From: Curtobacterium sp. MCSS17_007
Lineage (GTDB): Bacteria > Actinomycetota > Actinomycetes > Actinomycetales > Microbacteriaceae
Assembly: GCF_003234175.2 (NCBI RefSeq)
Contig: NZ_CP126257.1
Coordinates: forward strand, 2,728,001 to 2,792,000
DNA: 64,000 bases
Reading direction: 5' to 3'
The position numbers were made by a program, and so were the translations under genes. Positions 1-58,076 of the stretch are shown here, in pieces. The notes under the pieces are model-generated. The model ran no database searches and was not told where the DNA came from. It saw only the letters and a program-made list of their open reading frames with translations. Each line of letters starts with the position of its first letter. The first letter of the stretch is position 1.

Positions 1-1
1 G

Positions 2-85
2 GCGTACCCAGAAGAGTCCCTCCCCGGCGAGTACCCGCCCTTTCCGAAGTGGAGCGACGCGATCATCCGACCGCCGAAGATCTGA
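2..85 (+). CDS. C-terminal end of a family B lipoprotein (5' outside window)
   Basis: Only the last 27 codons are inside the window. They end in the motif FPKWSD...RPPKI and are nearly the same as the end of the next gene: 76 of the 84 bases (stop included) match bases 664-747. The stop TGA overlaps the ATG of the next gene (TGATG), so the two are a translationally coupled tandem duplication. By analogy with that neighbour this is a secreted or membrane-anchored lipoprotein of unknown function (family B in this annotation). The gene that starts this operon lies left of the window. Confidence 0.8.
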   Translation, partial: AYPEESLPGEYPPFPKWSDAIIRPPKI

Positions 86-747
86 TGCGACGCCTCCTCG
101 CAGCCCTCGTCGCCTCCGCTTCACTCGCCCTGACCGGCTGCGTCCCAGCAAGCGGCATCCCTGCCGTCGATGCCGGAGGTCTGACCCAGGATGAGGTAGC
201 GCAGATGTCGACGAAGAGAGAGTTCGACCTGTACAGCGAGCGCTACGCGCAGATGCAGGTGGTCCTCACGGAGGCGCAGCGAGCCGTGCACGTCGGTGAG
301 TGGTCCTGGATCGGCGGCGACCGGGTGCCGAACACCGGCGGCGACGGCATCGTTCCGCTCCGTGGAGCCAGTCCCGTCAACAGCTACTTCCTGCAGAGTG
401 ACCGTCTCTGGTCGCCACCGGGAGCGACCGGGGCTTCGCGCGATCTGCAGCCGATGATCGACTACTTCGGGAAGCAGGACTGGTCCTACCGCAAGCGAAC
501 CATCGGTCGGTACCACGAGGTCTTGGCGGACACGGGAACCGGTTGGTACGTCGAGTACGAGGTGCAGCCCAGTGGGGACTACGGCCTCACCGTGTACAGC
601 GGGCAGTACTGGACGAACGACAGTCTGGCGCTCACGGAGGCCGTCGGCGGCCGCAACGACGGGGAGTACCCCGAGGAGTCACTCCCCGGCGAGTACCCGC
701 CGTTCCCGAAGTGGAGCGACCCGACCATCCGACCGCCGAAGATCTGA
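85..747 (+). CDS. Family B lipoprotein, function unknown
   Basis: 220 aa. The start is the ATG inside the TGATG overlap with the upstream paralogue; it places a classic lipoprotein signal (basic MRR, hydrophobic stretch, lipobox LTGC with Cys at residue 19) at the N-terminus. An in-frame ATG 36 bases upstream would bury that signal, so it was rejected. The mature protein should be anchored to the outer face of the membrane. A related protein is at 36519-37226: both share EF(D/E)L..ERY, (W)SW/FW..GGD, NSY, D(L)QP/EPM..YF, a DTG.GW motif and a (Y/F)P(E/D)ES..G..PFP ending. That relative sits beside a DUF1023 hydrolase, so an immunity-like role is possible; this is inference. No Pfam family is recognised. 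Confidence 0.85.
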   Translation: MRRLLAALVASASLALTGCVPASGIPAVDAGGLTQDEVAQMSTKREFDLYSERYAQMQVVLTEAQRAVHVGEWSWIGGDRVPNTGGDGIVPLRGASPVNSYFLQSDRLWSPPGATGASRDLQPMIDYFGKQDWSYRKRTIGRYHEVLADTGTGWYVEYEVQPSGDYGLTVYSGQYWTNDSLALTEAVGGRNDGEYPEESLPGEYPPFPKWSDPTIRPPKI

Positions 748-32087: not shown

Positions 32088-32315
32088 ATGAGCGACATGG
32101 ACGAGAACGTCGCCGCGATGTACGTGGGTGCCCTCTGGATCAGTGTCGCGCTCCTCTCGGGCGGGTACGCCAGGACGCGGAACCGATCGGCATGGACCTG
32201 GTTCGTCCTGACGCTGATCGCGGGACCGCTCGCCCTGCTGCTCCTCGTCACGTGGCCGCCGCGGCAGCCGCGGGGTGAGGAGGCCCCGTGGACTCGGAGA
32301 GCAACAAGCCCGTGA
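32088..32315 (+). CDS. Small two-helix membrane protein
   Basis: 75 aa. Helix 1 is VAAMYVGALWISVALLSGG, helix 2 WFVLTLIAGPLALLLLVTW, with the RNRSAWTWF linker common in small actinobacterial membrane proteins. CCAGG lies just 5' of ATG 32088. Its last 28 bases overlap the next gene in another frame. Function unknown. Confidence 0.6.
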   Translation: MSDMDENVAAMYVGALWISVALLSGGYARTRNRSAWTWFVLTLIAGPLALLLLVTWPPRQPRGEEAPWTRRATSP

Positions 32316-32710
32316 GCACTGCCGAGGCCCGGCAGTCCGTGCAGGACATCGTCGACCGGACTGCCTCCTCACTCGAGGGCGACTGGGAGGTCTACAGCGG
32401 GCCCTCGGTCGAACAGTGCAGCAAGAGCGACGGCAGCGACGGCGCTGCCTACAGGTACATCAAGGCTCTCGCGAAGCCGACCGGTGAACCCGAAGCGGAC
32501 ATCGCCGTGATCAAGAAGCTGTGGGAGGAGGCCGGGATCACCACGCAACCGTACAAGAGTGGGGGCGACGACCCGATCCTCGGTCTGCGCGGCGCAGGTG
32601 GCCCGACCACGTCCATCAGCTTCCTGGCGGACACCCGTCGGTACACGGTCTCAGCAACGTCCGAATGTGCTGATGGGGACGCTGTCGAGATGCAGAGCAA
32701 CGGGGAGTGA
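32288..32710 (+). CDS. Family A protein lacking a signal peptide
   Basis: 140 aa from GTG 32288, which has a strong GAGGAGG site. It shares with the lipoproteins at 39511 and 35945 the pattern A.....(D/G).W.V.SGP....C, G(A)AY.Y, ITTQPYKSGGDDPILGLRG.GGPTTSISF(L)AD and a C-terminal Cys then NGE. Unlike them it has no lipobox; the frame upstream is occupied by the overlapping small membrane protein. So it is either cytoplasmic or its signal has been replaced by coupling to that membrane protein. Function unknown. Confidence 0.75.
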   Translation: MDSESNKPVSTAEARQSVQDIVDRTASSLEGDWEVYSGPSVEQCSKSDGSDGAAYRYIKALAKPTGEPEADIAVIKKLWEEAGITTQPYKSGGDDPILGLRGAGGPTTSISFLADTRRYTVSATSECADGDAVEMQSNGE

Positions 32711-35944: not shown

Positions 35945-36443
35945 TCAGTCCTGGCCGTCGAGGCTCATCTTGTCGAAGTCGCCTGCGACGCACAGCGAGC
36001 TGCCGTCGATCGTGTACCCGCGAGGATCCGCGCGGAAGTCGGACGACTCCACCGGGCCACCCCTACCCCGGACGCCGAGGATGGGGTCCTCACCGCCGGT
36101 CTGGTACCGCTCGGTCGTGACCCCGAGCTCCTTCCAGTGCCGCTCCACCGCCTCGACGTCGGCCCTCGGATCCGCGCTCGCTGAGCGGACCTCGGCGTAG
36201 ACGTACTGCACGCCCCCCCTGCCCCAGGCCGACGCCGCATTTCCCGAGCCGAGGGCCCTCACCGATCTCCCAGCCGTCCCCCACCACATCGGTCGATCCC
36301 TCGACGAAGCCGACGATCGACTGCTTCGCCTGCTCCGGGCTCTTCCCGATGCCGGCGCTGCAGCCAGCGAGAACGGCGGCGGCGAACAACGCAGCTCCTG
36401 CCGACCGCAAGACGGTGACGACCTTCCGCCGATTCAGATCCAT
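35945..36443 (-). pseudogene. Family A lipoprotein, frame broken in a 7-C/G run
   Basis: From ATG 36443 the protein starts with a lipoprotein signal (VLRSAGAALFAAAVLAGC) and reads KSPEQAKQSIVGFVEGS...GWEIGEGP up to the homopolymer at 36213-36219. After it the homologous part (VQYVYAEVRS, VTTERYQTGGEDPILGVRG.GGP) continues in another frame to the stop at 35945. With one G fewer (six) the frame is restored to 165 aa and aligns along its length with the family A proteins at 39511 and 32288. Last gene of the DUF1023 - family B - family A operon. Either off by slippage, decayed or a sequence error. Confidence 0.8.
36213..36219 (+). repeat. 7-bp C homopolymer at the frame break
   Basis: CCCCCCC on the plus strand (G7 in the coding strand). 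Loss of one base joins the two halves of the family A lipoprotein frame. A candidate slippage site. Confidence 0.85.
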
Positions 36444-36518
36444 GCGGGAACTCCTTCCAGAGCAGCTTGCACCCGCGGCGTCGGCCCGACCTCTCGATGG
36501 GCGACCCTGCTCGAGTGG

Positions 36519-37226
36519 TCAGCGTTGCCGGACAGCGTCGCCGTACTCCGGGAACGGCTCGTGAACACCGGGCTGTGACTCGTCGGGGAAGTCCGCGGGG
36601 TCGCGCAGTGCGATCGCCTCGATGAGCTCCGGCGCATCGCGCGCCCAGAACGCCTCGCTGTACACACCGAGCGAGTACTGCCCGTTCGGCCGCACACTCC
36701 AGGTCACCCACCATCCGTCGCCGGTGTCGGCCCTGACCTCGTGATCAGTCCCGACCTTCGCGCTGCTGGAGCGCCATCCCTTCTCGTCGAAGTAGCGCTG
36801 CATCGGTTCGAGGTCCTGCTCAGCGCCGGTCGCTCCGTCTGGCTCGATGATCCGGACCGCGCGGAAGGAGTAGGAGTTCTCCTTGGTCGCGCCCTTCGGC
36901 GCCTCGCCGAACGCGGCGTCGCCAGCAGGCAGCGGGCGGACGTCTCCACCGTTCCAGAACCACGTGCCACCCGAGATCTGCTCCTGCGCGGCGGCGAGGA
37001 CCTCCTGCCCGTGCTCGTAGCGCTCACCGGCCAACTCGAACTCCTCCTGCAACGAGAGATCGGCTACCTGCGCCTGCGTCTTGCCTGCTGCGTCTCGTGC
37101 GTCCTGTCCGGCCACGTCGTCTCCTCTGCTTGCGCCGCCCGAGGCGCATCCGGTCGTCGCGAGCACCACGGCTGCGAGCATGGTCACGATCGCGTGGCGC
37201 AGTCGGGGTCGAATCTCGACGATCAT
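36519..37226 (-). CDS. Family B lipoprotein beside DUF1023 hydrolase
   Basis: 235 aa. Signal peptide with lipobox ATTGC (Cys27), then EEFELAGERYEHGQEVL, TWFWNGGD, NSYSFRAVRI, EQDLEPMQRYF, DTGDGWWVTW and a DFPDESQPG..EPFPEYGD ending; these match the product of 85-747 along its length. ATG 37226 overlaps the stop of the DUF1023 gene (ATGA), so its translation is coupled to that hydrolase. That position, membrane anchoring and family expansion fit an immunity-type protein against an exported hydrolase (inference). The start is fixed by the signal peptide and overlap. Confidence 0.85.
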   Translation of the reverse strand: MIVEIRPRLRHAIVTMLAAVVLATTGCASGGASRGDDVAGQDARDAAGKTQAQVADLSLQEEFELAGERYEHGQEVLAAAQEQISGGTWFWNGGDVRPLPAGDAAFGEAPKGATKENSYSFRAVRIIEPDGATGAEQDLEPMQRYFDEKGWRSSSAKVGTDHEVRADTGDGWWVTWSVRPNGQYSLGVYSEAFWARDAPELIEAIALRDPADFPDESQPGVHEPFPEYGDAVRQR

Positions 37227-39068
37227 GGCCCCATCTTCCCGCCTGCGACGATCTGCGCCAGCGTCCTGAGCGTGGTCGAGTCCTGAGACAGGTACCCGAC
37301 GTCGTCCGAATCGGAGTCGTGCCACATGTCGTGACCCGTTACTCCTCTCGCACCCTCGACTGCTTCCGACGAGAACTCCTGCACGCCGTCGAAGCCGAGC
37401 GGATCAGCTCGGTTGGCGAAGCCCACCCACTGACCGACCGGCGCAAGCGGATCGTCCTTCGCGGCCGTCGCGTAGACGTGGCCAGCATGCACGTCCCCGA
37501 TCTCGGTCCCGTGCGGGAAGCCGACCGACCCGTAAGACACGAACGAGTCGACCTGATGCTCCGTCAACTGGAGCCCCTGCACCGCAGTGGTAGAGCCGTA
37601 CGAGTGCGCAGCAACTGTGAAGGTGTCAGGGGCATCTCCTGGCCTGCTGTCGAAGACACCGTCCACGAAGGAGGCCAGCTCCGCGGCGCCGGACTCCGAT
37701 CGGTTGGGTGCGCCCACCTCCAGCGGGCTCGGCGCGTGGTAGCCGACCCCGGAAACGACGGCGTAGGTCTGTTTCCGATCAACAGCGTGCGCTTCGCGCA
37801 ACAGTCCTTCGGCGGCCTGGACACGTTCGCCCATTCCAGCCACGTCCGATTCCATCCCTGGCACGTTCACCGTCACGTTGTTCGCCGTGTCGAGGTCCCC
37901 CAGCGACAGGGCGGCGACCAGCGCACCGTCGTGCACCCCGAATCCCACGAGCTGCGCCGTCTTGGACGTCTCAGGCCCGGGGAGGGTTTCCACACTGATG
38001 TCGGCCGCGTCGACGGCCTTCTGCAGCGCATCGACCTGTTCCTCGAAGTCCGACCGACCGACGCGCTGCCCACCGAAGCCCATGAGCATGTACACCCGCT
38101 CCGGATCCCGCACCGCCACCGCCAGCACGGCTCGAGACGCGATGTCCCGCTTCGCAGCAGGGATGCCGTCGAGGTTTGCGAACAGGTACTGCGTCGCCAG
38201 CGGCAAGGACTCGATGTAGGCGTCCGTCCGTCTGCGGGAGCCGCGCGTAGGCCGCGGCGACCTCAGCAGGGGTCAGGCCCGGCCGGAGCAGCGTGGACAG
38301 CGCTGGCGATCCGCTCACCGTTGCCACAGCGTCGAGCGTCAAGTCCGGAAGTGCGCCGCCACCAGCGCGGTCGAAGGCGTTCGCAATGCCTTCGATCCAG
38401 CTCGCCTCCAACGCGTTCTCAGCCAGTAGCTGGTCAAACCCCGCCACGATCGTCGAACCCTGGATCGGCACCCACGAGCAGGCCGAGCAGAAGCGGGCCC
38501 ATGCGTTCTTCACCTGGATCAGGTGCTGCGCAGTACTGTCGTCAGCTGCTCTGCTGGCCCCGGCGAACGTCAACAGCGCGTCGGGATCAGCGGAGGAAGT
38601 GCTCCCTGAGCTTCCGCCACCAGTGCGCGGGCGCGCCCTCGGCGCAAAGGCCGCCGTGACCGGAGTCGGTAGCACCGCGGTGTCGTCCGGGCGCGGATCA
38701 ACCACGCCGTCGATGTAGGCCGACGCCGCTGCGAGCGGGTCTCCGGAAGCGCGACGCTCCTCACGCTCCGCCTCCCTCGCCGCCCATGCACGCGAGTCCT
38801 GGACCCGCCGCCGCTCGGTGTCGGCCTCCTTCTTCGCTCGATCGATCGATGTCCGGAGGTCAGCGAAGAGACCGGCGAGGCGCTGCGCGTCCTCCGACCT
38901 GACCGTGCTGCCGGTCGTGAAGAGCGTCGCGTAGCGGCCGCGGAACTCCTCAACCGCTGCCTCGACCCGCACACGGTCTGCCATCGCCTGTGATCGCAGG
39001 TCCCCGGAAGCCCCGTCGGCAGCAGCGATGAGGGCATCGGCCGCCCCGTCATCGAACACGATCGTCAC
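37223..39068 (-). pseudogene. WXG/LXG-like plus DUF1023 alpha/beta hydrolase, frame broken by 4-nt duplication
   Basis: The first part (GTG 39068 on, with GGGG site) is a helical domain with coiled-coil AQRLAGLFADLRTSIDRAKK and a Trp-Ala segment, like WXG100/LXG export domains, then a Pro/Ser linker and another helical domain (AEVAAAYARLPQTD). At 38221-38232 the frame is lost; it continues in another frame as YIESLPLATQYLFANLDGIP, VYMLMGFG and the DUF1023 hydrolase with nucleophile AAHSYGST and C-terminal His. Removing one GACG unit restores a 613-codon protein exactly. DUF1023 proteins are serine hydrolases often fused to WXG-type domains. The downstream family B lipoprotein overlaps by ATGA. 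Confidence 0.8.
38221..38232 (+). repeat. Tetranucleotide CGTC x3 at the hydrolase frame break
   Basis: Three perfect CGTC units on the plus strand (GACG on the coding strand). Two units would keep the DUF1023 gene in frame, three break it. Confidence 0.9.
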
Positions 39069-39510
39069 GCACACCCCCGTGTGGATCGCAATCTGGTCCT
39101 CGACACTACTGAAGGACCGACGCCCTTGTTCGACCGAGCCCTGGGAGGGCATCGCGGATCACCGCCGCATCCCGCAGGAAGCCGGATGTGGGACGGACGA
39201 GATCGTGGGACCGTCGTCTCGGAGTCGCGAGCGTCCGGGTGGTACGACACGACGGGCCGTTCGAGCTCGAGAGTGACCGCAGGTGTCGCCCCGAGGAGTC
39301 CCTTCGTGACGCTCCTCCACTCCAGCAGCGGTGCCTCAGCGTGCGGTCCGACCGGCTCACGGATCGCTCGTCGACACCGTCTACTCGAAGGCTCGCGCCA
39401 CTGGCCAACCAGAACCCTGCCCTTCATCCCTCACGGCACTGGCGTCGTGGCACGCCCGGAGCAACGGTCTTCGCGCTCGGATCCGGTCTCACTAGGGTCG
39501 AGGCGTGGGG
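39069..39510. other. Gene-free stretch between divergent cassette genes
   Basis: 442 bp between the DUF1023 gene and the family A lipoprotein at 39511, which face away from each other. Short open frames exist on both strands but have no ribosome-binding site, domain or paralogue in the window. It should hold the promoters of both genes; no clear operator was seen. Confidence 0.6.
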
Positions 39511-40035
39511 ATGAGATCAGACATGACGGCGGCATGCCGACTGCCGCTCGACAGGATCACCGGCTCCGTGATGTCCGTCGCTGCCGCGGCGCTCGCGCTG
39601 ATGGGCTGCTCCGGAGGGAGCTCCCTGGAGAACGAGCAGACCCCCGACAAGGCGAAGGACGCAGTCGTCGTGATGGTCGACGATACAGCCAGTGCGGTCG
39701 ACGGCACGTGGTCAGTTGCGAGTGGACCAGCGGTCCAGGCTTGCAAGCGCGACGGCGGCGGACACGGCGCTGCATACTTCTACACGAAGATGCGCGAGCC
39801 GCGCGCCGGAGACCCATCGGACGACGTCGCCATCGTCGAACGGCTGTGGAAGGACAAGGGCCTCACGACCGAACGCTACGAGAGCGGAGGCGCTGACCCG
39901 ACGCTGGGCGTCCGGGGAACGGGCGGCCCGACGACGAGCATCGACTTCCTCGCCGACGAACGCGGGTACAGCCTCGACGCCGTCTCCGTCTGCACCGCTG
40001 GCGATGCAGAGGAGCTCCAGCGCAACGGCGAATGA
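39511..40035 (+). CDS. Family A lipoprotein
   Basis: 174 aa. A long signal (MRSDMTAACRLPLDR then VMSVAAAALALMGC, lipobox LMGC) is followed by PDKAKDAVVVMVDDTASAVDGTWSVASGP, C....GGGHGAAYFYTKMR, LTTERYESGGADPTLGVRGTGGPTTSIDF and a terminal Cys..GDAEELQRNGE. It is the intact relative of the products at 32288 and 35945. Membrane-anchored on the outside; function unknown. ATG 39511 is used; GTG 39505 and ATG 39523 are alternatives. Its stop overlaps an ATG that could start the next gene. Confidence 0.82.
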   Translation: MRSDMTAACRLPLDRITGSVMSVAAAALALMGCSGGSSLENEQTPDKAKDAVVVMVDDTASAVDGTWSVASGPAVQACKRDGGGHGAAYFYTKMREPRAGDPSDDVAIVERLWKDKGLTTERYESGGADPTLGVRGTGGPTTSIDFLADERGYSLDAVSVCTAGDAEELQRNGE

Positions 40036-44027: not shown

Positions 44028-44125
44028 CGTACCGACGACGTCATGGGCTTCGGGCGCTGCCGTAGCGCAGGACCGACCGGATGTGGAACGACGCGAGCCA
44101 GATGCAGCAAGCCGATCCTCGCAGC

Positions 44126-44710
44126 ATGAACGCTCTCCTCATCGGGTACGCCCGCGTCTCAACCCACGAACAAGACCTCACCGCGCAGCGCGTCGCGCTT
44201 GAACGGCTCGGAGTCCTTCCGATCAACATCCACACTGACCACGGCTTGACCGGCACGAATCGTTCACGACCCGGTCTCCGCGAAGCGCTCGCTTCCTGCC
44301 GTGACGGAGACACGCTGGTGATCGCGAAGCTGGACCGGTTGGCCAGGCGCCTCCGCGATGCGAAGGACATCGTCGACGAACTCACGGCGAAGAACGTGAA
44401 GCTCAACATCGGTGGCTCTGTCCACGATCCGAACGACCCCGTGGGTCGGCTGCTGTTCAACGTCCTCGCGATGGTGGCCGAGTTCGAATCAGACCTGATC
44501 CGAGCCAGGACACGCGAGGGAATGCAGATCGCGAAGGCGAAGGGTCACCTCCGTGGGCGACAGCCCAAGCTCAACGTCGCGCAGCAGCGGCACCTCCTCG
44601 AAGTGCACGAGGCCGGCACACATTCGGTCGCCGAGCTTGCGGAACTCTTCAGTGTTGGACGAGCGACCGTCTACCGCTGCATCGACCGCCAAGTGCACCC
44701 TGACCGCTGA
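44126..44710 (+). CDS. Serine recombinase (resolvase/invertase family)
   Basis: 194 aa. The catalytic domain begins LLIGYARVSTHEQDL with nucleophile Ser12, followed by LDRLARRLRD, RLLFNVLAMVAEFESDLIRART (helix E) and a C-terminal helix-turn-helix (HSVAELAELFSVGRATVYRCI). This matches Tn3-type resolvases or DNA invertases. ATG 44126 fits the family start; a longer frame from 44081 exists. It stands alone without a transposase, so it is a remnant or solitary inversion/resolution gene. A terminator follows. Confidence 0.9.
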   Translation: MNALLIGYARVSTHEQDLTAQRVALERLGVLPINIHTDHGLTGTNRSRPGLREALASCRDGDTLVIAKLDRLARRLRDAKDIVDELTAKNVKLNIGGSVHDPNDPVGRLLFNVLAMVAEFESDLIRARTREGMQIAKAKGHLRGRQPKLNVAQQRHLLEVHEAGTHSVAELAELFSVGRATVYRCIDRQVHPDR

Positions 44711-48986: not shown

Positions 48987-50479
48987 GCGTCCGACCCCGT
49001 GTTCGCACGCCTGCAGTCGGATCGTGTGCGTGGGAGTGGCAGGCGACGTCGGTCGAGTTGGACGCGATCGGGAAGAGATGGCGGCCCTGACCGGGGTGGG
49101 CGTTCGTTCCTCGTGCTCTGGTGGCGGGGGGTTTCGGCGGTCATAACGACCTGCATCTCTGGGGCAGCGAGCCCCGTGATGTCGGGACGTGCCAACGCGT
49201 CAAGCGGCCGCGGAGAACGGGAGCATCGTGACGGTGACCTTGGTGGTGACCCGAGTGCTCACGCTACGTCGAATACGCGGGACAGGCCGCGAGTCGTGCG
49301 GATCGTGGCTCTCTGGCCGGTGCGAACACCCCCGTACCGGAGCCGTGAAGTCTGCCCATTCGACGATGAAATCAGCGCACAACTCTTTCGTCGCAGGCCT
49401 CGCATGGCTGTGTGCTCGCCCTTGCAGACGCCGACCGATAGAAGTGGGATGCGGGGGCGTCTGCCTGGAGTTCGGGTCCGGAGCAGCCGCCCCCGCGCTA
49501 CGACGCCGTCGGGTTCGACGCTGAAAGTCACAACGAAGCCAGCCCGAAAACAGGGAGATCGGGTTGCCGCAGCTAGGGCCACGGCGTAGCTCACGGGACG
49601 CTACACGCCGTGGTCCACGGCGACTCCCAGCACCGCCTCACACTCCCGTCCATCACAGGGGTCCTACTAGTCCGTTAGCCGATCGGCAAACGGACTGCCT
49701 CCGTCTGCCGGTTCGGTCGTATCTGCGTAGTCCTGAAGATCACGACTCTACGACACCGGGGCCACCGGGTACGCACATCGACGCCAGATGGATCATCGGA
49801 CAGGGCCTCATCGTCACCGCGGTGACCGCACGCCGTGTGAAGCAGTAGCCGTCGAGAAAGACGATCCTAAGCGCCATCTACCGGACGGCTAGACGTTTTC
49901 GCGGACCGAGGGTCAGCGAGAACGCACCTCGAGCCCTTCGAAGGAAAGGGGTGGAGTGGGTCCTATCTCAACGCAATTCACGTGCACGCCCGCCTCGATG
50001 ACTGGCGTTGGAATCGTTAGCAGCGCAGGTGCCGCGCTCCCACGAACGGGCCGCCTCCGGGTGAGGGCAGCGAAAGGGAGTGCCCGCCGTGCAGGTCTCA
50101 ACCGCTAATCGGTCAGCGAGACAGCCGTTACTCCGGCGCTACGCCCGAACAATGATGAACGGTGAGCGCAACCAACGTCGGCGTGCACGGCCGCTCACGC
50201 GTGCCGAACGCACCGCAAAGCGAAGGCAGTACGAGCAGCCGATGTGGCTACCGCGGCCCTTGCGATGGTTATGGGCCTAGCTGATTCGACCGCTCGTACT
50301 AGCGGTCCTCAAAGTCCTCGACGTCGCAGTGAGCGTCTGGCACTGACTCTGCCCGGTGATGGATCCCCGGTCGAGATCCTGACCCGCGGTTCAAACTGCG
50401 TCGAGGGACAGGGAAGCTGCGCTGAGTCGCGAGCCAGGCTTCAGTTGTTGAATCTTCCTCGCTCTGCAAGGATCGAGCC
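48987..50479. other. 1.5-kb stretch without recognisable genes
   Basis: Lower GC than the flanks. Short frames (for example a basic ORF ending MWLPRPLRWLWA at 50280) lack domains. Features seen: an imperfect hairpin at 49571-49605 (CCACGGCG/CGCCGTGG), and a small hairpin GACCGCT/AGCGGTC at 50288-50307. It separates the AraC gene from the frameshifted gene at 50480 and may contain decayed or foreign DNA. Confidence 0.5.
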
Positions 50480-51479
50480 ATGATTCAGATCCGGCAGGAA
50501 CATCAGCTCAACCCTGTTTCGGAGCCCGTTAGCGCCCTTGTCGCTGTCACGCGCCCGATTCTTGTGGGGCTGCTGCACTCAATCGGTGAGGAGTATCTGG
50601 AGCCCCACGGTGGCCGAGAGGGCCTGCGCCTGAAAAACCTTGGTCGAGTGCGTAAGGCGAGCGATGGTGATTTGGGCGTCGCATTCGAGTATGCAGTGCA
50701 CGACGCAGTGATGAGGCAAGAGCCAATCATCAGTGATCGCGTCGCAACTGCACTGGGGCAGGTTTCGTATCACCGAGACAGAGCCGAAGTCGATACTCTT
50801 CGCGATCGAAAAGTCGGGTTCGAAGCAGCTCGTAGACACCAAACGCGAACTAATCACCCCTGATTCCCGAGTGCTTTCAGGAGGACGAGGCCAGCCGGTG
50901 AAGCTGCAGGGGTACATGAACCAGCTTGCGGCGGCATTCCATCGCCCTGCATCTCGTCCACAATTGCCCCGCAGTATTCAGGGCCTCTGGAAGGCAGACC
51001 TTTTCTTAGGGTCAACGGGGCGTGACCACTGGGTGGGCACCACAGTGAAAATCAACCCGTCAAGGCTGGAAGCTGCCGCGGGACTGCGGATAGCGATTGT
51101 TCCATCTTCGGCGGGAGCCTCCGATGCCGTTCGCATGGATGAACAGAAGAACCTCGTGGTGTGTCCTGTGCCTCACGACTTCAGTTTCATGCAGACCTTC
51201 TTCGAAGGCATGCGCATTGTGCAAATGCTGGTAGCGCGCGATTTCAAAATGCCGAGCGACTCTGACCTGCCAAACCCAGCGCATCGCGAAGTTGCGAGAA
51301 TCTACGTGGAGCGACGCAACTCGAAAGTCAGTGAGGTTCTTGACTCGGTCGGTGTCTTCGCCCAGCCCGAACTCCTTCATACCACCCCAGAGGACGTCAC
51401 TGCTGCCCTGTTCGAAACTGAGCAGGGACCACAGACCTACACTGTTCTCGGTCCGATGCCCCGGAGCACCTCGGATTGA
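50480..51479 (+). pseudogene. Possible PD-(D/E)xK-like protein, frame broken near a G4 run
   Basis: From ATG 50480 the frame reads RPILVGLLHSIGEEYLEP, then FEYAVHDAVMRQEP up to about 50755. There the homologous reading switches to the next frame: RITETEPKSILFAIEKSGSKQLVDTK, LWKADLFLGSTG, WVGTTVKINPSRLEA, VCPVPHDFSFMQTFFEGMRIVQ, to a stop at 51479. Removing one G at 50755-50758 gives 332 aa. A Glu (FE), Asp (KAD) and TVK in this order hint at a PD-(D/E)xK nuclease fold. Lower GC than the chromosome suggests transfer. Could be two genes, but the second lacks a proper start. Confidence 0.6.
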
Positions 51480-51646
51480 CCTTTGCAAGGTGACCCGCTC
51501 GGGGCGTCCTCTCACCCTCAGGCCGTAACTGCGAGCGCGGCGAGACAGCGGATCTCAGTAGCCAATCGATGAACGGACGCCGACGTGCCGTAGATCGGCG
51601 ATCGTAAGCAGTGTCCGCTTAGCCGGCACCGACACGACTTGCAGCG

Positions 51647-53119
51647 TCAGCGGGAAAACCGAAGAAGTTCACCTTCAACCCGGGTCTTTGGGTTCCCTTG
51701 TTTGTCCGTGCCGTTAGGGCGCGTGACGGTGGTGAGCTCGTCTTGTCCGAGTTCGTTCTCGACTTCTTCGATCAGGCTTGCACGGATGTATCGGATTGCA
51801 TCTGGGTCGATGGGGATGTCATGCAGGGCGGTCATCCGGATCAGGGCGGAGGCAAGCTTCTCACCGAATCGGAGATCGCGAGCCGTCCGGCGCTGCCCGC
51901 GCTGGCCGTGTTTCAAGTCGTTTTGCAGTGTCGCAAGGAACTGCGCGACGAGCATCTCGACATCGAACGGGGGCCGTGCGAGATTCGACCAGTCTCCTCC
52001 GCTAGCGCGTACGCAGTTGGCAATCGCGTCCACCAGCTTGATCTGTTCGTGAGGCGCACCGACGACCCAGCCGCCGAGTGCTTCCAGGGTGTTGATCAGC
52101 AGCATTGCCCGGGGCTCGAGGAACCGGGTGAATCCTGCAAGCGCTTCAATTGCTGACTGCATCGGGTTCCGGAAGGCGTCGTCGTCGAGCCACCGCTCAA
52201 ACCAGGCCTGCATGCCGTCCGGACCGAGCGCCGGCATACCGAACAGGGGGACGGGGAGCTTTACCGGATCCTGGAAGGTGCTGTACGCGGTGTCAGCGAT
52301 GAAGGCCGGCGCCCAGTCGATCGTGTCCGGTTCTCCTCGCATGTATTTCGTCGGGAACGATAGGCCACGCACGTGGTGGCTTCGCCACTCCACGCGCTTG
52401 CCGTATGCGAGAACGAGGAGGCTTCGCATCGGGTACTGCTGCCACAACAGGATCTCTGGCTGCACGTCACCGCCGAGCCACTTGGTTTCGATCACGACCT
52501 CGTTGTGGACTGTGACTCCCTCGTCGTTCTCCCGCCAAGGTGTGGTTCGCAGCACGTCGTACTGCAGGGCGGAAGCGAAGTCTTCCGCGTCGACCGTCCA
52601 CGAGACATGCTCCTTGACGCTCCGGGTGAGCACGATCTGCTCGGGGTGCTCCTGGTCGGTGTCTGCGACTTCGATGCGACCGAAACCGCTGAAGCGGGCA
52701 AGCCCGTCGATCGTTGAGTACATCTCCTCCACGGAGAGCACGGACGGAGCCAGGGGGGTTTCGAGCGCGCGAGTAATGCGTTCTTCGGCCGTTCCCGTTG
52801 GAAGCGCTTCCGGGTACTGACAGATCGCGTTTCGCGCTCTCCCTCTCGTAACGAGAATCGTGCTGCCATGTCGGCCTGTGTAGCGAACGTCCGAAAGAGT
52901 CACCGGCCCGCGGTCATCGACGAATAGGAGGTCGACGCCGCCGCGCCCGGGCTTGAGCCACTCCTCGATGACCGCGTACTGCGGTTGCCGAGGTGATGCC
53001 GGCACGGCGATTTCCGGACCCAGTTCCGTCCAAGTCAGCGATGCGGCGATGAGATCAGGGTGCTTACCGTCGCTGAGTAAGCCTGTTCGGACGTCGTTGG
53101 CTCGGAGCACGTTATCCAT
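51647..53119 (-). CDS. HEPN-domain protein, ApeA-like (candidate defence)
   Basis: 490 aa. Residues about 1-270 are beta-rich (VTLSDVRYTGRHGSTILV, EQIVLTRSVKEHVSWTV, RSLLVLAYGKRVEWRSHHVRGLSFP), resembling the N-terminal domain of ApeA anti-phage proteins. Residues about 310-430 are helical, with IEALAGFTRFLEPRAMLLINTLEAL and the HEPN-like end motif LQNDLKHG (about 398-405), close to the RNase-type R....H motif but with Gln in place of Arg. ApeA proteins abort phage infection through a HEPN nuclease. Start ATG 53119 has no clear ribosome-binding site; an amber codon lies four codons upstream in frame. A pentanucleotide repeat lies 157 bp upstream. Confidence 0.55.
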   Translation of the reverse strand: MDNVLRANDVRTGLLSDGKHPDLIAASLTWTELGPEIAVPASPRQPQYAVIEEWLKPGRGGVDLLFVDDRGPVTLSDVRYTGRHGSTILVTRGRARNAICQYPEALPTGTAEERITRALETPLAPSVLSVEEMYSTIDGLARFSGFGRIEVADTDQEHPEQIVLTRSVKEHVSWTVDAEDFASALQYDVLRTTPWRENDEGVTVHNEVVIETKWLGGDVQPEILLWQQYPMRSLLVLAYGKRVEWRSHHVRGLSFPTKYMRGEPDTIDWAPAFIADTAYSTFQDPVKLPVPLFGMPALGPDGMQAWFERWLDDDAFRNPMQSAIEALAGFTRFLEPRAMLLINTLEALGGWVVGAPHEQIKLVDAIANCVRASGGDWSNLARPPFDVEMLVAQFLATLQNDLKHGQRGQRRTARDLRFGEKLASALIRMTALHDIPIDPDAIRYIRASLIEEVENELGQDELTTVTRPNGTDKQGNPKTRVEGELLRFSR

Positions 53120-53275
53120 GACGTCAAACTATTCGGTGAGGCTCCCCCGGTCCATGGTGCCTCGATCCTGATTGGCAGCCGCGGTCCTAGCGCTGGTCAT
53201 GGCCTCGTTCATCCCAAGGAACTCGCGGACCGTCTGATGCGCGATCGGCGCAGGCGCCTGAGGCCGGCTCCGCTC

Positions 53276-53320
53276 GGCTCGGCTCGGCTCGGCTCGGCTC
53301 GGCTCGGCTCGGCTCGGCTC
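53276..53320 (+). repeat. Pentanucleotide GGCTC x9
   Basis: Nine perfect GGCTC units, preceded by one imperfect (CGCTC). Minus-strand frame through it reads (SRAEP)n and is the frame that ends four codons before the ApeA-like start. Each unit gained or lost shifts the frame, so this is a candidate slippage switch upstream of the defence-like gene. Confidence 0.9.
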
Positions 53321-53488
53321 GGCGTCAGTGTCGTCAAACCGATCGTCGACACATCCCACGTCGGGGAAGGTATGGCAGCCGTGAAGTGGGCAGAGCCTGG
53401 AGAGATCGGCACCTGGTGGTGCGGCCACATCACATTGGTCCGGCTCGGGCACCTCGAACCAAAAGGTTAGTGGCTCATGAACTACCGG

Positions 53489-53791
53489 CTACTTGCTACT
53501 GGCAGCCCCACGATCAGTCGCCGACTCCGGAACCAGAGTCACCCGCAGAGACATTTGCAATCGCGCCACCGTCGCGAGATCCGGCCACGCCAGTCCAGCC
53601 AACACGTTCGCTAACGTCTGCGGATTGACTTCCGCCGCCAGAGCAACTGACCGCAGGGACCGGGACCCGATCGCGCTCCTGAGCCGCAATACAAACTGCC
53701 GGCCGAACTCGCCCAGCGAGTTTTCGCTCGACGCTTCAGGCCATGGACTAGGACATAGGTCCACAGGCCGCGGACGGCTCACGCGCGGCAC
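53489..53791 (-). CDS. XRE-type helix-turn-helix protein
   Basis: 100 aa. Residues about 27-90 match an HTH_3 fold: FGRQFVLRLRSAIGSRSLRSVALAAEVNPQTLANVLAGLAWPDLATVARL. The N-terminal 25 residues are Pro/Ser-rich. GTG 53791 is used; an overlapping ATG is in another frame. It lies between the ApeA-like gene (same strand) and nrdF and may regulate the neighbouring accessory genes. Confidence 0.72.
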   Translation of the reverse strand: MPRVSRPRPVDLCPSPWPEASSENSLGEFGRQFVLRLRSAIGSRSLRSVALAAEVNPQTLANVLAGLAWPDLATVARLQMSLRVTLVPESATDRGAASSK

Positions 53792-53992
53792 ATCAACCTC
53801 CTACGGCCAAACAGTGCACGTATACGAGAACTGGCTGGCGCTACACAAGACCGGACACCAGGCGAAACTGGCCAGATCTATGCGTTTTCGGCCAACCACC
53901 GCGCGCTGCTGACCACATCTCATTCCTGCTTGGCCAAGTACCGGCTCGCGCATCACGAAGCCAGCGAGGCGCCCTCACGAGTCAGACCAGGA

Positions 53993-57200
<3,208 letters not shown>

Positions 57201-57217
57201 CCCCGTCTGCGGCGACG

Positions 57218-57634
57218 TCAGATCGACGTCTGCAACTGCTGCGTCCAAAATGCATCCAATCCAGTGTTGACAGCCAGCACGTCGTCCGGCGTGCCGAAGA
57301 GTTCGAAGCGGTACAGGAGCGGGACGCCGCACTTCTGCGCGATGACGTCCCCGGCGAGGCCGTAGGCCTCGCCGAAGTTCGTGTTGCCCCCGACGATCAC
57401 GCCGCGGATGAGCGAGCGGTTGCGTTCGTCGTTGAGGAACTTGATGACCTGCTTGGGCACCGCGCCCTGCCCGTTGCCGCCGCCGTATGTGGGCAGGACC
57501 AGCACGTACGGCTCGTCCGCATGGAGGAACGGGTCGTTCGGGAAGAGCGGGATGCGGTCCGCGTCACGGCCGAGCTTCTCGATGAAGCGGGCCGTGTAGC
57601 CGGACACGCTCGAGAAGTAGACGAGGCGACTCAT
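57218..57634 (-). CDS. nrdI: Flavodoxin-like ribonucleotide reductase maturation protein NrdI
   Basis: 138 aa. [41 protein letters not shown] and [17 protein letters not shown] match NrdI, which binds FMN and provides the oxidant for the NrdF metal cofactor. It ends 17 bp before nrdE. Confidence 0.95.
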
Positions 57635-57746
57635 GTGCGCGCTCCTTGTGAGAGGTGCGGACAGCAGATCGGGGGTGGCCTGACGGAGGTGCTGCGCGCC
57701 TCCCGGCCGGCGGAGGTGCGGGTCCCGATGACGGGACCCGCACGGC

Positions 57747-57980
57747 TCACGCGAGTTCGGCGCTGAGCGTCGCGATCTTGTCGGGACGGAAGCCCGACCA
57801 GTGGTCGTCGTCGGTCACGACGACGGGGGCCTGCATGTAGCCGAGGCTCTTGACGTGCTCGAGCGCGGCTTCGTCCGCGGAGACGTCGAGCACCTCGTAC
57901 TGGATGCCCTTGTTGTCGAGGGCGCGGTACGTCGCGGTGCACTGGACGCAGGACGGCTTGGTGTAGACGGTGACGGCCAT
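57747..57980 (-). CDS. nrdH: Glutaredoxin-like electron donor NrdH
   Basis: 77 aa. Thioredoxin-fold redoxin with active site SCVQC (Cys11, Cys14) and [24 protein letters not shown]. It reduces NrdE. First gene of the operon; NrdR boxes lie about 100-145 bp upstream. Confidence 0.95.
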
Positions 57981-58076
57981 GATCTCCCCTGGTTCTTGCT
58001 GGGTGTTTCGTGCTGTGGAGGGTGGTGCTGATGCCTGTGCGCAGACGAGTCCGGGAGGGGCCGCTGCGATGGCTCC

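What the first reader, a model, noticed from the sequence alone, without database searches (positions are those of the whole stretch)
35945..39068. Putative exported-hydrolase/immunity cassette: WXG-like DUF1023 hydrolase, family B and family A lipoproteins
On the minus strand a helical WXG/LXG-like plus DUF1023 alpha/beta-hydrolase gene overlaps a family B lipoprotein by ATGA, followed by a family A lipoprotein. Relatives of both lipoproteins recur in the window (family B at 2 and 85; family A at 32288 and 39511) without the hydrolase. Known T7SS-exported toxins carry WXG/LXG domains and are paired with downstream immunity genes that often occur in extra copies. I infer that the lipoproteins protect the outer face of the membrane against the hydrolase. 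I know of no described system with this layout.
Basis: partly seen in the sequence, partly recalled or inferred. Interest (0 to 1): 0.78.

Follow-up and report, generated by a model that had tools for sequence, protein, structure and literature searches.

The report
Exported hydrolase with paired lipoprotein shields
A group of soil and plant bacteria carries a lipase-like enzyme gene, perhaps for an exported toxin, that is nearly always followed by genes for surface lipoproteins which may protect the cell from it; the copy found here is broken, but similar pairs occur in other actinobacteria and include LppA-type lipoproteins, whose job is unknown.

Summary
The cassette is real, but two of its three genes are broken: the DUF1023 hydrolase (39068-37223, minus) and the family A lipoprotein (36443-35945) each change frame; family B (37226-36519) is open. 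The "family B copies without the hydrolase" are a window-edge error: an open hydrolase gene overlaps the first B gene just outside the window. In Curtobacterium, 58 of 60 fetched loci of this hydrolase kind have an A or B lipoprotein directly behind; 0 of 30 loci of a paralogous kind do. A and B are remote homologues; B's model resembles DUF4853 and mycobacterial LppA. In two sampled genomes of one other genus, all eight above-cut-off LppA genes lie in five clusters directly behind a DUF1023 gene. Some sister hydrolases have WXG domains and small upstream partner genes; the genome has a type VII secretion locus. In four of six relatives at this locus the hydrolase is missing while B stays open (A in three). 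Best reading: exported lipase-like toxin with surface lipoprotein immunity, working like TslA/TilA but built from other families. Activity, export and protection are untested. New variant of a known kind; interest 0.62.

The parts
38229..39068 (-). DUF1023 hydrolase gene, N-terminal piece (alpha kind), first frame
   Evidence: 42% identical to residues 91-347 of the L005 hydrolase; no Pfam match; helices in a relative's model are of low confidence
37223..38206 (-). DUF1023 (PF06259) alpha/beta-hydrolase piece, second frame; AHSYG motif; gene broken upstream
   Evidence: PF06259 E 7.7e-20; 49% identical to the L005 hydrolase; motif serine 63 of 63 rows, histidine 62 of 63
36519..37226 (-). family B lipoprotein, open, overlaps the hydrolase stop by ATGA
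   Evidence: lipobox TTGC; 37-43% identical to nine other B proteins; model pLDDT 82.7, DUF4853/LppA-like
35945..36443 (-). family A lipoprotein, frame-broken
   Evidence: lipobox LAGC in the first frame, family A C-terminal part in a second frame
39505..40035 (+). family A lipoprotein, open, divergent from the hydrolase
   Evidence: lipobox LMGC in the translation; 51% identical to the copy at 32288 and 49% to the cassette's A piece
32288..32710 (+). family A copy without signal peptide (truncated)
1..85 (+). 3' end of the first family B gene of the neighbouring cassette; its hydrolase and the rest of B lie outside the window (L005)
49..747 (+). second family B lipoprotein of the neighbouring cassette (start at 49 or 85)

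Best explanation
The cassette is a decayed copy of a toxin-immunity module. Inferred mechanism: a DUF1023 alpha/beta-hydrolase (lipase/esterase class) with an N-terminal helical export domain leaves the cell by the type VII secretion system and attacks a lipid or other ester on the outer side of the membrane of neighbouring cells. The lipoproteins, encoded directly downstream and probably translationally coupled, are anchored outside the producer's own membrane and bind and block the hydrolase there. Extra and tandem copies, and copies kept where the hydrolase is gone, would give protection against variants from others. Shown here: gene layout and its conservation, catalytic-motif residues, lipoboxes, T7SS genes, WXG domains in some sister hydrolases, loci that lack the hydrolase but keep open lipoprotein genes. 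Inferred: export, toxicity, target, binding.
For: Forward linkage: 58 of 60 fetched hydrolase loci, against 0 of 30 loci of the paralogous kind found beside ligA in this genome; a scripted recount on the genes that my caller found gave 54 of 55 hydrolases against 50 of 365 other genes of the same loci, many of those 50 by length being lipoproteins in arrays. Reverse linkage: family B 48 of 56 hits, family A 115 of the 150 best (listed) hits within 5 kb of DUF1023; 48 and 112 downstream on the same strand. Tandem copies: 17 of 192 DUF1023 hits have three or more listed lipoprotein hits within 5 kb downstream. Hydrolase missing, B kept: 4 of 6 syntenic relatives, two with 27- and 39-residue remnants of the hydrolase N-terminus; B open in 4 of 4, A in 3 of 4; pN/pS of B among those four 0.22-0.44. 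A hydrolase remnant followed by an open A gene lies elsewhere in the same genome (L162). WXG100 above the Pfam cut-off in L083, just below in L087. Small upstream genes in 10 of 10 gamma and 21 of 26 beta kinds; [FY]xxx[DE] in 18 of 34 tails against 5.0 in shuffles. T7SS locus: EccC over cut-off, EccD, ESAT6_3, WXG100-like. Same pairing in 17 of 22 best loci of other genera and with LppA. Precedent TslA/TilA.
Against: The window hydrolase and one lipoprotein are broken. The alpha-kind N-terminal domain has no Pfam match, 22 of 23 alpha kinds lack the small upstream gene, and the model there is of low confidence. The gamma-kind protein scanned (L039) has no WXG100 match either, and the six small upstream proteins scanned match T7SS families only below cut-off or not at all. 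The catalytic domain is not hypervariable: pN/pS is similar in the N- and C-terminal pieces. Preferential co-variation of the lipoprotein with the catalytic domain was strong in one analysis, weak in a rank-based repeat, and reversed within alpha kinds. EccC_b is over its cut-off in only 20 of 60 genomes; longer FtsK-type proteins match at E <= 1.1e-40 in 59 of 60, but below the cut-off. Eight of 56 B hits and 35 of the 150 listed A hits are not near DUF1023. Outside the family, 8 of 17 long DUF1023 ORFs judged have no lipoprotein directly behind them. In one of the four hydrolase-less relatives (G017) another hydrolase fragment lies about 7 kb away. No activity was measured.
Confidence: 0.6

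Rival explanations
1. The hydrolase is an envelope-processing enzyme (turnover of a lipid or cell-wall ester) and the lipoprotein is its dedicated activator, foldase or membrane anchor rather than an immunity protein.
For: Tight gene overlap and co-inheritance fit a working complex equally well; the motif serine is strictly conserved; the B model also aligns, at lower Z, with envelope lipoproteins such as LpqN.
Against: Lipoprotein genes stay open where the hydrolase is missing; they form tandem arrays and orphans; the number of DUF1023 hits varies from 1 to 7 between genomes.
Confidence: 0.22
2. Hydrolase and lipoproteins are exported surface proteins acting on a plant or environmental substrate, with no antibacterial role.
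For: The genus includes plant pathogens (PMC8830320, start of abstract in a search listing); esterases are among the closest folds of the hydrolase model.
Against: Does not explain orphan and tandem lipoproteins; the same pairing occurs in 17 of 22 best loci of other genera.
Confidence: 0.08
3. The hydrolase is a cytoplasmic enzyme; its adjacency to lipoproteins is an inherited accident.
For: No signal peptide evident in the translation; the alpha-kind N-terminal domain is unrecognised by Pfam.
Against: 58 of 60 linkage in the genus, and pairing with LppA in a distant genus; WXG100 in sister genes.
Confidence: 0.06

Closest known systems
TslA/TilA of Staphylococcus aureus (T7SS lipase toxin and immunity lipoprotein, PMC10730906)
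   Same: Lipase-like enzyme next to a lipoprotein gene; lipoprotein family with variable, tandem and orphan copies; a frame-shifted paralogue is reported there too; small helical partners, as in the beta and gamma kinds here
   Different: TslA has the catalytic domain first and an LXG-like domain last, with the lipoprotein gene upstream; TilA is DUF576. Here the helical part comes first, DUF1023 last, lipoprotein genes downstream, and the lipoproteins match no DUF576 model. Secretion, toxicity and inhibition are shown there and untested here
LppA family (PF16708); M. tuberculosis LppA structure 2v7s
   Different: No PF16708 match of any A or B member in the Pfam scans; pairing not tested here in M. 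tuberculosis itself
Classical polymorphic T7SS toxins (LXG/WXG) and their immunity proteins (PMC3482391)
   Same: N-terminal WXG domain in some sister hydrolases, candidate immunity gene directly downstream, tandem copies
   Different: Immunity candidate is a lipoprotein (the paper names Imm65 as the only lipoprotein in its collection); DUF1023 is not in the held text (first 300,000 of 357,715 characters); no hypervariable C-terminal end seen

Membership tests
DUF1023 / Abhydrolase_8 (PF06259) | Pfam match above the curated cut-off | tested here: met
   71.7 bits against 20.5
DUF1023 / Abhydrolase_8 (PF06259) | conserved nucleophile serine and histidine of an alpha/beta-hydrolase | tested here: met
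   HSYG serine 63 of 63 rows, histidine 62 of 63, window piece included
T7SS WXG/LXG toxin | recognisable N-terminal WXG100/LXG domain in this protein | tested here: not met
   no Pfam match for the window piece or L005 and L123; 9.6 bits in L007. Met in the sister L083 (30.1 bits), just below the cut-off in L087, absent in L039
T7SS WXG/LXG toxin | small helical partner gene upstream | tested here: not met
   none seen at this locus; absent in 22 of 23 alpha kinds, present in 10 of 10 gamma and 21 of 26 beta kinds
T7SS WXG/LXG toxin | T7SS machinery in the genome | tested here: met
   EccC above both NCBIfam cut-offs; EccD and YukD above their Pfam cut-offs (TIGR03920 below its own); ESAT6_3 above cut-off, WXG100 just below
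T7SS WXG/LXG toxin | T7SS-dependent secretion and toxicity | not testable with these tools
   needs experiment
TslA/TilA | catalytic domain N-terminal, LXG-like domain C-terminal, lipoprotein gene upstream | tested here: not met
   DUF1023 is C-terminal and the lipoproteins are downstream
TslA/TilA | DUF576-family immunity lipoprotein | tested here: not met
   no DUF576 family among the Pfam matches listed for 33 A and 22 B members at E 0.5
TslA/TilA | lipoprotein binds and inhibits the lipase | not testable with these tools
   needs experiment
LppA (PF16708) | Pfam match of A/B | tested here: not met
   not among the Pfam matches of 33 A and 22 B members
LppA (PF16708) | same fold | tested here: inconclusive

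The most novel reading that the evidence does not exclude
DUF1023 hydrolases with helical/WXG N-termini are a broad class of actinobacterial T7SS effectors that act on the outer side of the membrane, and a lipoprotein superfamily uniting families A and B with LppA (and perhaps DUF4853) is their immunity; mycobacterial LppA/LppB, reported as diversity and selection hot spots, would then be immunity lipoproteins.
Probability: 0.42. Interest if true: 0.82.

Novelty: new variant of a known kind. Interest (0 to 1): 0.62.

Why it matters
If true, it gives a role to a hydrolase family for which I found no described function, and to a group of surface lipoproteins that includes LppA, and shows that lipase-plus-lipoprotein immunity, described for the Staphylococcus T7SS, exists in Actinobacteria with different parts. 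It turns "what does LppA do?" into a binding and inhibition test. lppA/lppB are reported as recombination and positive-selection hot spots in M. tuberculosis (PMC4770551 and PMC11056549, passages read), which an arms-race role could explain.

Tried and rejected
Pfam for A and B and NCBIfam for 33 A members and three B proteins: nothing convincing. PDB by sequence for A, B and the hydrolase: nothing significant. Hydrolase-free B copies at the window start: rejected. Preferential co-variation of lipoprotein and catalytic domain: partial correlation 0.85 against 0.18 with a multiple alignment, 0.31 against 0.26 with pairwise ranks and reversed within alpha kinds; not used as support. Family A beyond the family: 2 of 345 other phylum genomes, both behind a DUF1023 gene, but that search scored at most ten candidates a genome. 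Two PF16708 hits below the cut-off (L168, L169) had no hydrolase hit. Papers: 4 hold DUF1023, 4 hold Abhydrolase_8 (2 listed), 6 hold PF06259 (4 listed); I read passages of three and saw only the listing of the other listed ones; none of what I saw links the family to lipoproteins or T7SS. Searches for Rv2542 with LppA and Rv2079 with LppJ found no papers. That M. tuberculosis has DUF1023 genes beside lppA/lppB and lppJ is recalled, not tested. The fold of the hydrolase's N-terminal domain stays unresolved (pLDDT under 50 over most of residues 1-66). Foldseek 'pdb' could not be run; VIA-align rows were used. An earlier count said 18 of 22 other-genus loci; the count is 17 of 22.

Full report
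What is there. On the minus strand a DUF1023 hydrolase gene begins at 39068; its catalytic part (PF06259, E 7.7e-20) ends at 37223 and overlaps a family B lipoprotein by ATGA; 75 bp after B a family A lipoprotein begins at 36443. The hydrolase is in two frames, changing between 38229 and 38206, and family A is in two frames as well. B is open and carries a lipobox. Open hydrolase, B and A genes exist at the same locus in two relatives (G033 and G047), so this copy is decayed or mis-sequenced; its hydrolase pieces still show pN/pS of 0.24-0.28 against those relatives.

The genome has four DUF1023 genes. One lies just outside the window start (L005): its hydrolase overlaps family B by 4 bp and a second B gene follows. 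A third (L007) is followed, again with a 4-bp overlap, by a family A lipoprotein. The fourth (L006, beside ligA by my reading, about 470 codons) has none. In the window, family A at 39505 is divergent from the hydrolase, 437 bp away, and the copy at 32288 has no signal peptide.

Linkage in the genus. The genus is Curtobacterium, from the record titles of six relatives. All 60 sampled genomes have PF06259, 1 to 7 hits each. I fetched 60 loci of the kind whose match starts at profile position 4 or later, in order of score. Of these, 58 have a lipoprotein directly downstream: 56 by script, which blastp clustering puts into families A and B, and 2 by eye; the overlap is 4 bp in most. The exceptions are L084, followed by a degenerate A frame, and L094, with none. 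L094's genome G040 is also the only one of 60 without a match to EccC_b better than 1.7e-11, a single case. Of 30 loci of the paralogous kind (L006 and the 29 of L008-L037 other than L016), the script found 0 with a lipoprotein. In the reverse direction 48 of 56 B hits and 115 of the 150 best A hits lie within 5 kb of a DUF1023 hit, 48 and 112 downstream on the same strand, against about 1% by chance. The A list was cut at 150 by the tool, a few B hits are fragments, and the A/B profiles were built from hydrolase-adjacent genes, so they may favour such members.

Beyond the genus. In 120 genomes sampled from the family, 25 have family A at E 1e-6, 22 of them in other genera; in 17 of their 22 best loci a profile built from the Curtobacterium hydrolases hits beside the lipoprotein. 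Among 345 other phylum genomes two have family A, both behind a DUF1023 gene. Pfam LppA (PF16708) has eight above-cut-off hits in 2 of 346 phylum genomes, both of one genus; they form five clusters, each directly behind a PF06259 gene, with a 4-bp overlap in each. One cluster is followed by what look like PE and PPE genes (my reading), so the genus is probably Mycobacterium. In the 29 best phylum loci (one a genome), 17 have a long ORF with an HSxG motif; 9 of these 17 have a lipoprotein directly behind (7 by script, 2 by eye). The other twelve, mostly short ORFs, had no such motif and were not judged.

Secretion system. L110 in the same genome holds EccC (above both NCBIfam cut-offs), EccD, ESAT6_3 and WXG100-like genes and a protein with a TNT domain; the L007 cassette lies about 14 kb from its first gene. 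EccC_b is over cut-off in 20 of 60 genomes; FtsK-type proteins match it at E <= 1.1e-40 in 59 of 60, but such matches below the cut-off are not proof of a T7SS (control genomes also ring).

Loss of the hydrolase. Six relatives carry B at the LysR-MesX-MetE locus (gene names are my reading). Two have hydrolase, B and A; four lack the hydrolase but keep B open (4 of 4) and A (3 of 4); two of the four keep the first 27 and 39 residues of the hydrolase beside B. One of the four, G017, has a separate hydrolase fragment about 7 kb away. In the window's own genome L162 shows a 95-residue hydrolase remnant overlapping an open family A gene. B stays under constraint among the four (pN/pS 0.22-0.44), although the age of the losses is unknown. 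Of 192 DUF1023 hits, 17 have three or more listed lipoprotein hits behind them.

Reading. A lipase-like exported toxin with surface lipoprotein immunity fits best, at about 0.6. An enzyme with a lipoprotein helper is the main rival; retained, tandem and orphan lipoproteins speak against it. The two genes are inherited together, but the claim that the lipoprotein follows the catalytic domain more than the export domain did not hold up.

Known systems. TslA/TilA (abstract and sections 6, 9 and 12 of PMC10730906) works in the way proposed here: T7SS lipase, immunity lipoprotein, variable copy number. Its domain order, gene order and protein families differ, so this is a parallel, not a member. 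The 2012 survey of polymorphic toxins (PMC3482391, passages and section 33) has no DUF1023 in the held text and names Imm65 as its only lipoprotein immunity protein. lppA/lppB are reported as recombination and selection hot spots in M. tuberculosis (PMC4770551 and PMC11056549, passages). In the literature searches made and in what I read of the results, I saw no paper that links DUF1023 to lipoproteins or to T7SS.

Noticed in passing
L110:2306-4669 (own genome, about C1:2206805-2209168): A 787-residue protein with a C-terminal TNT domain (Pfam, E 2e-15) sits beside WXG100-like genes in the T7SS locus: probably another T7SS toxin.
   Followed up: no
L162:1495-2288: Remnant of a DUF1023 hydrolase C-terminus overlapping an open family A lipoprotein by 4 bp in the same genome.
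   Followed up: partly
L164:1459-1884 (own genome, near C1:602201): A short family A lipoprotein that seems to lack an internal stretch, with no hydrolase hit in the locus.
   Followed up: no
G250:C1 about 4624000-4630900 (also G226:C69, G410:C82): PF06259 hits at modest E-values inside giant open frames (4292, 4990 and 20955 codons); G250 has four in one frame.
   Followed up: no
L177-L185: A short DUF1023 kind (about 400 codons) in one genus of large genomes has no HSxG motif that my script could find; it may use another nucleophile motif.
   Followed up: no
L160:2-1468: A distant DUF1023 protein beside a family A match also hits the T6SS phospholipase Tle3 family weakly (E 0.0037, below cut-off).
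   Followed up: no
window 50000-58000: G+C drops to 60-64% from about 72%; genes there look like ribonucleotide reductase, with a resolvase-like gene at 44081-44710 (my reading).
   Followed up: no
L111:6126-10433 (own genome): A second EssC/EccC-like ATPase, below the NCBIfam cut-offs, near what looks like a protein kinase gene.
   Followed up: no
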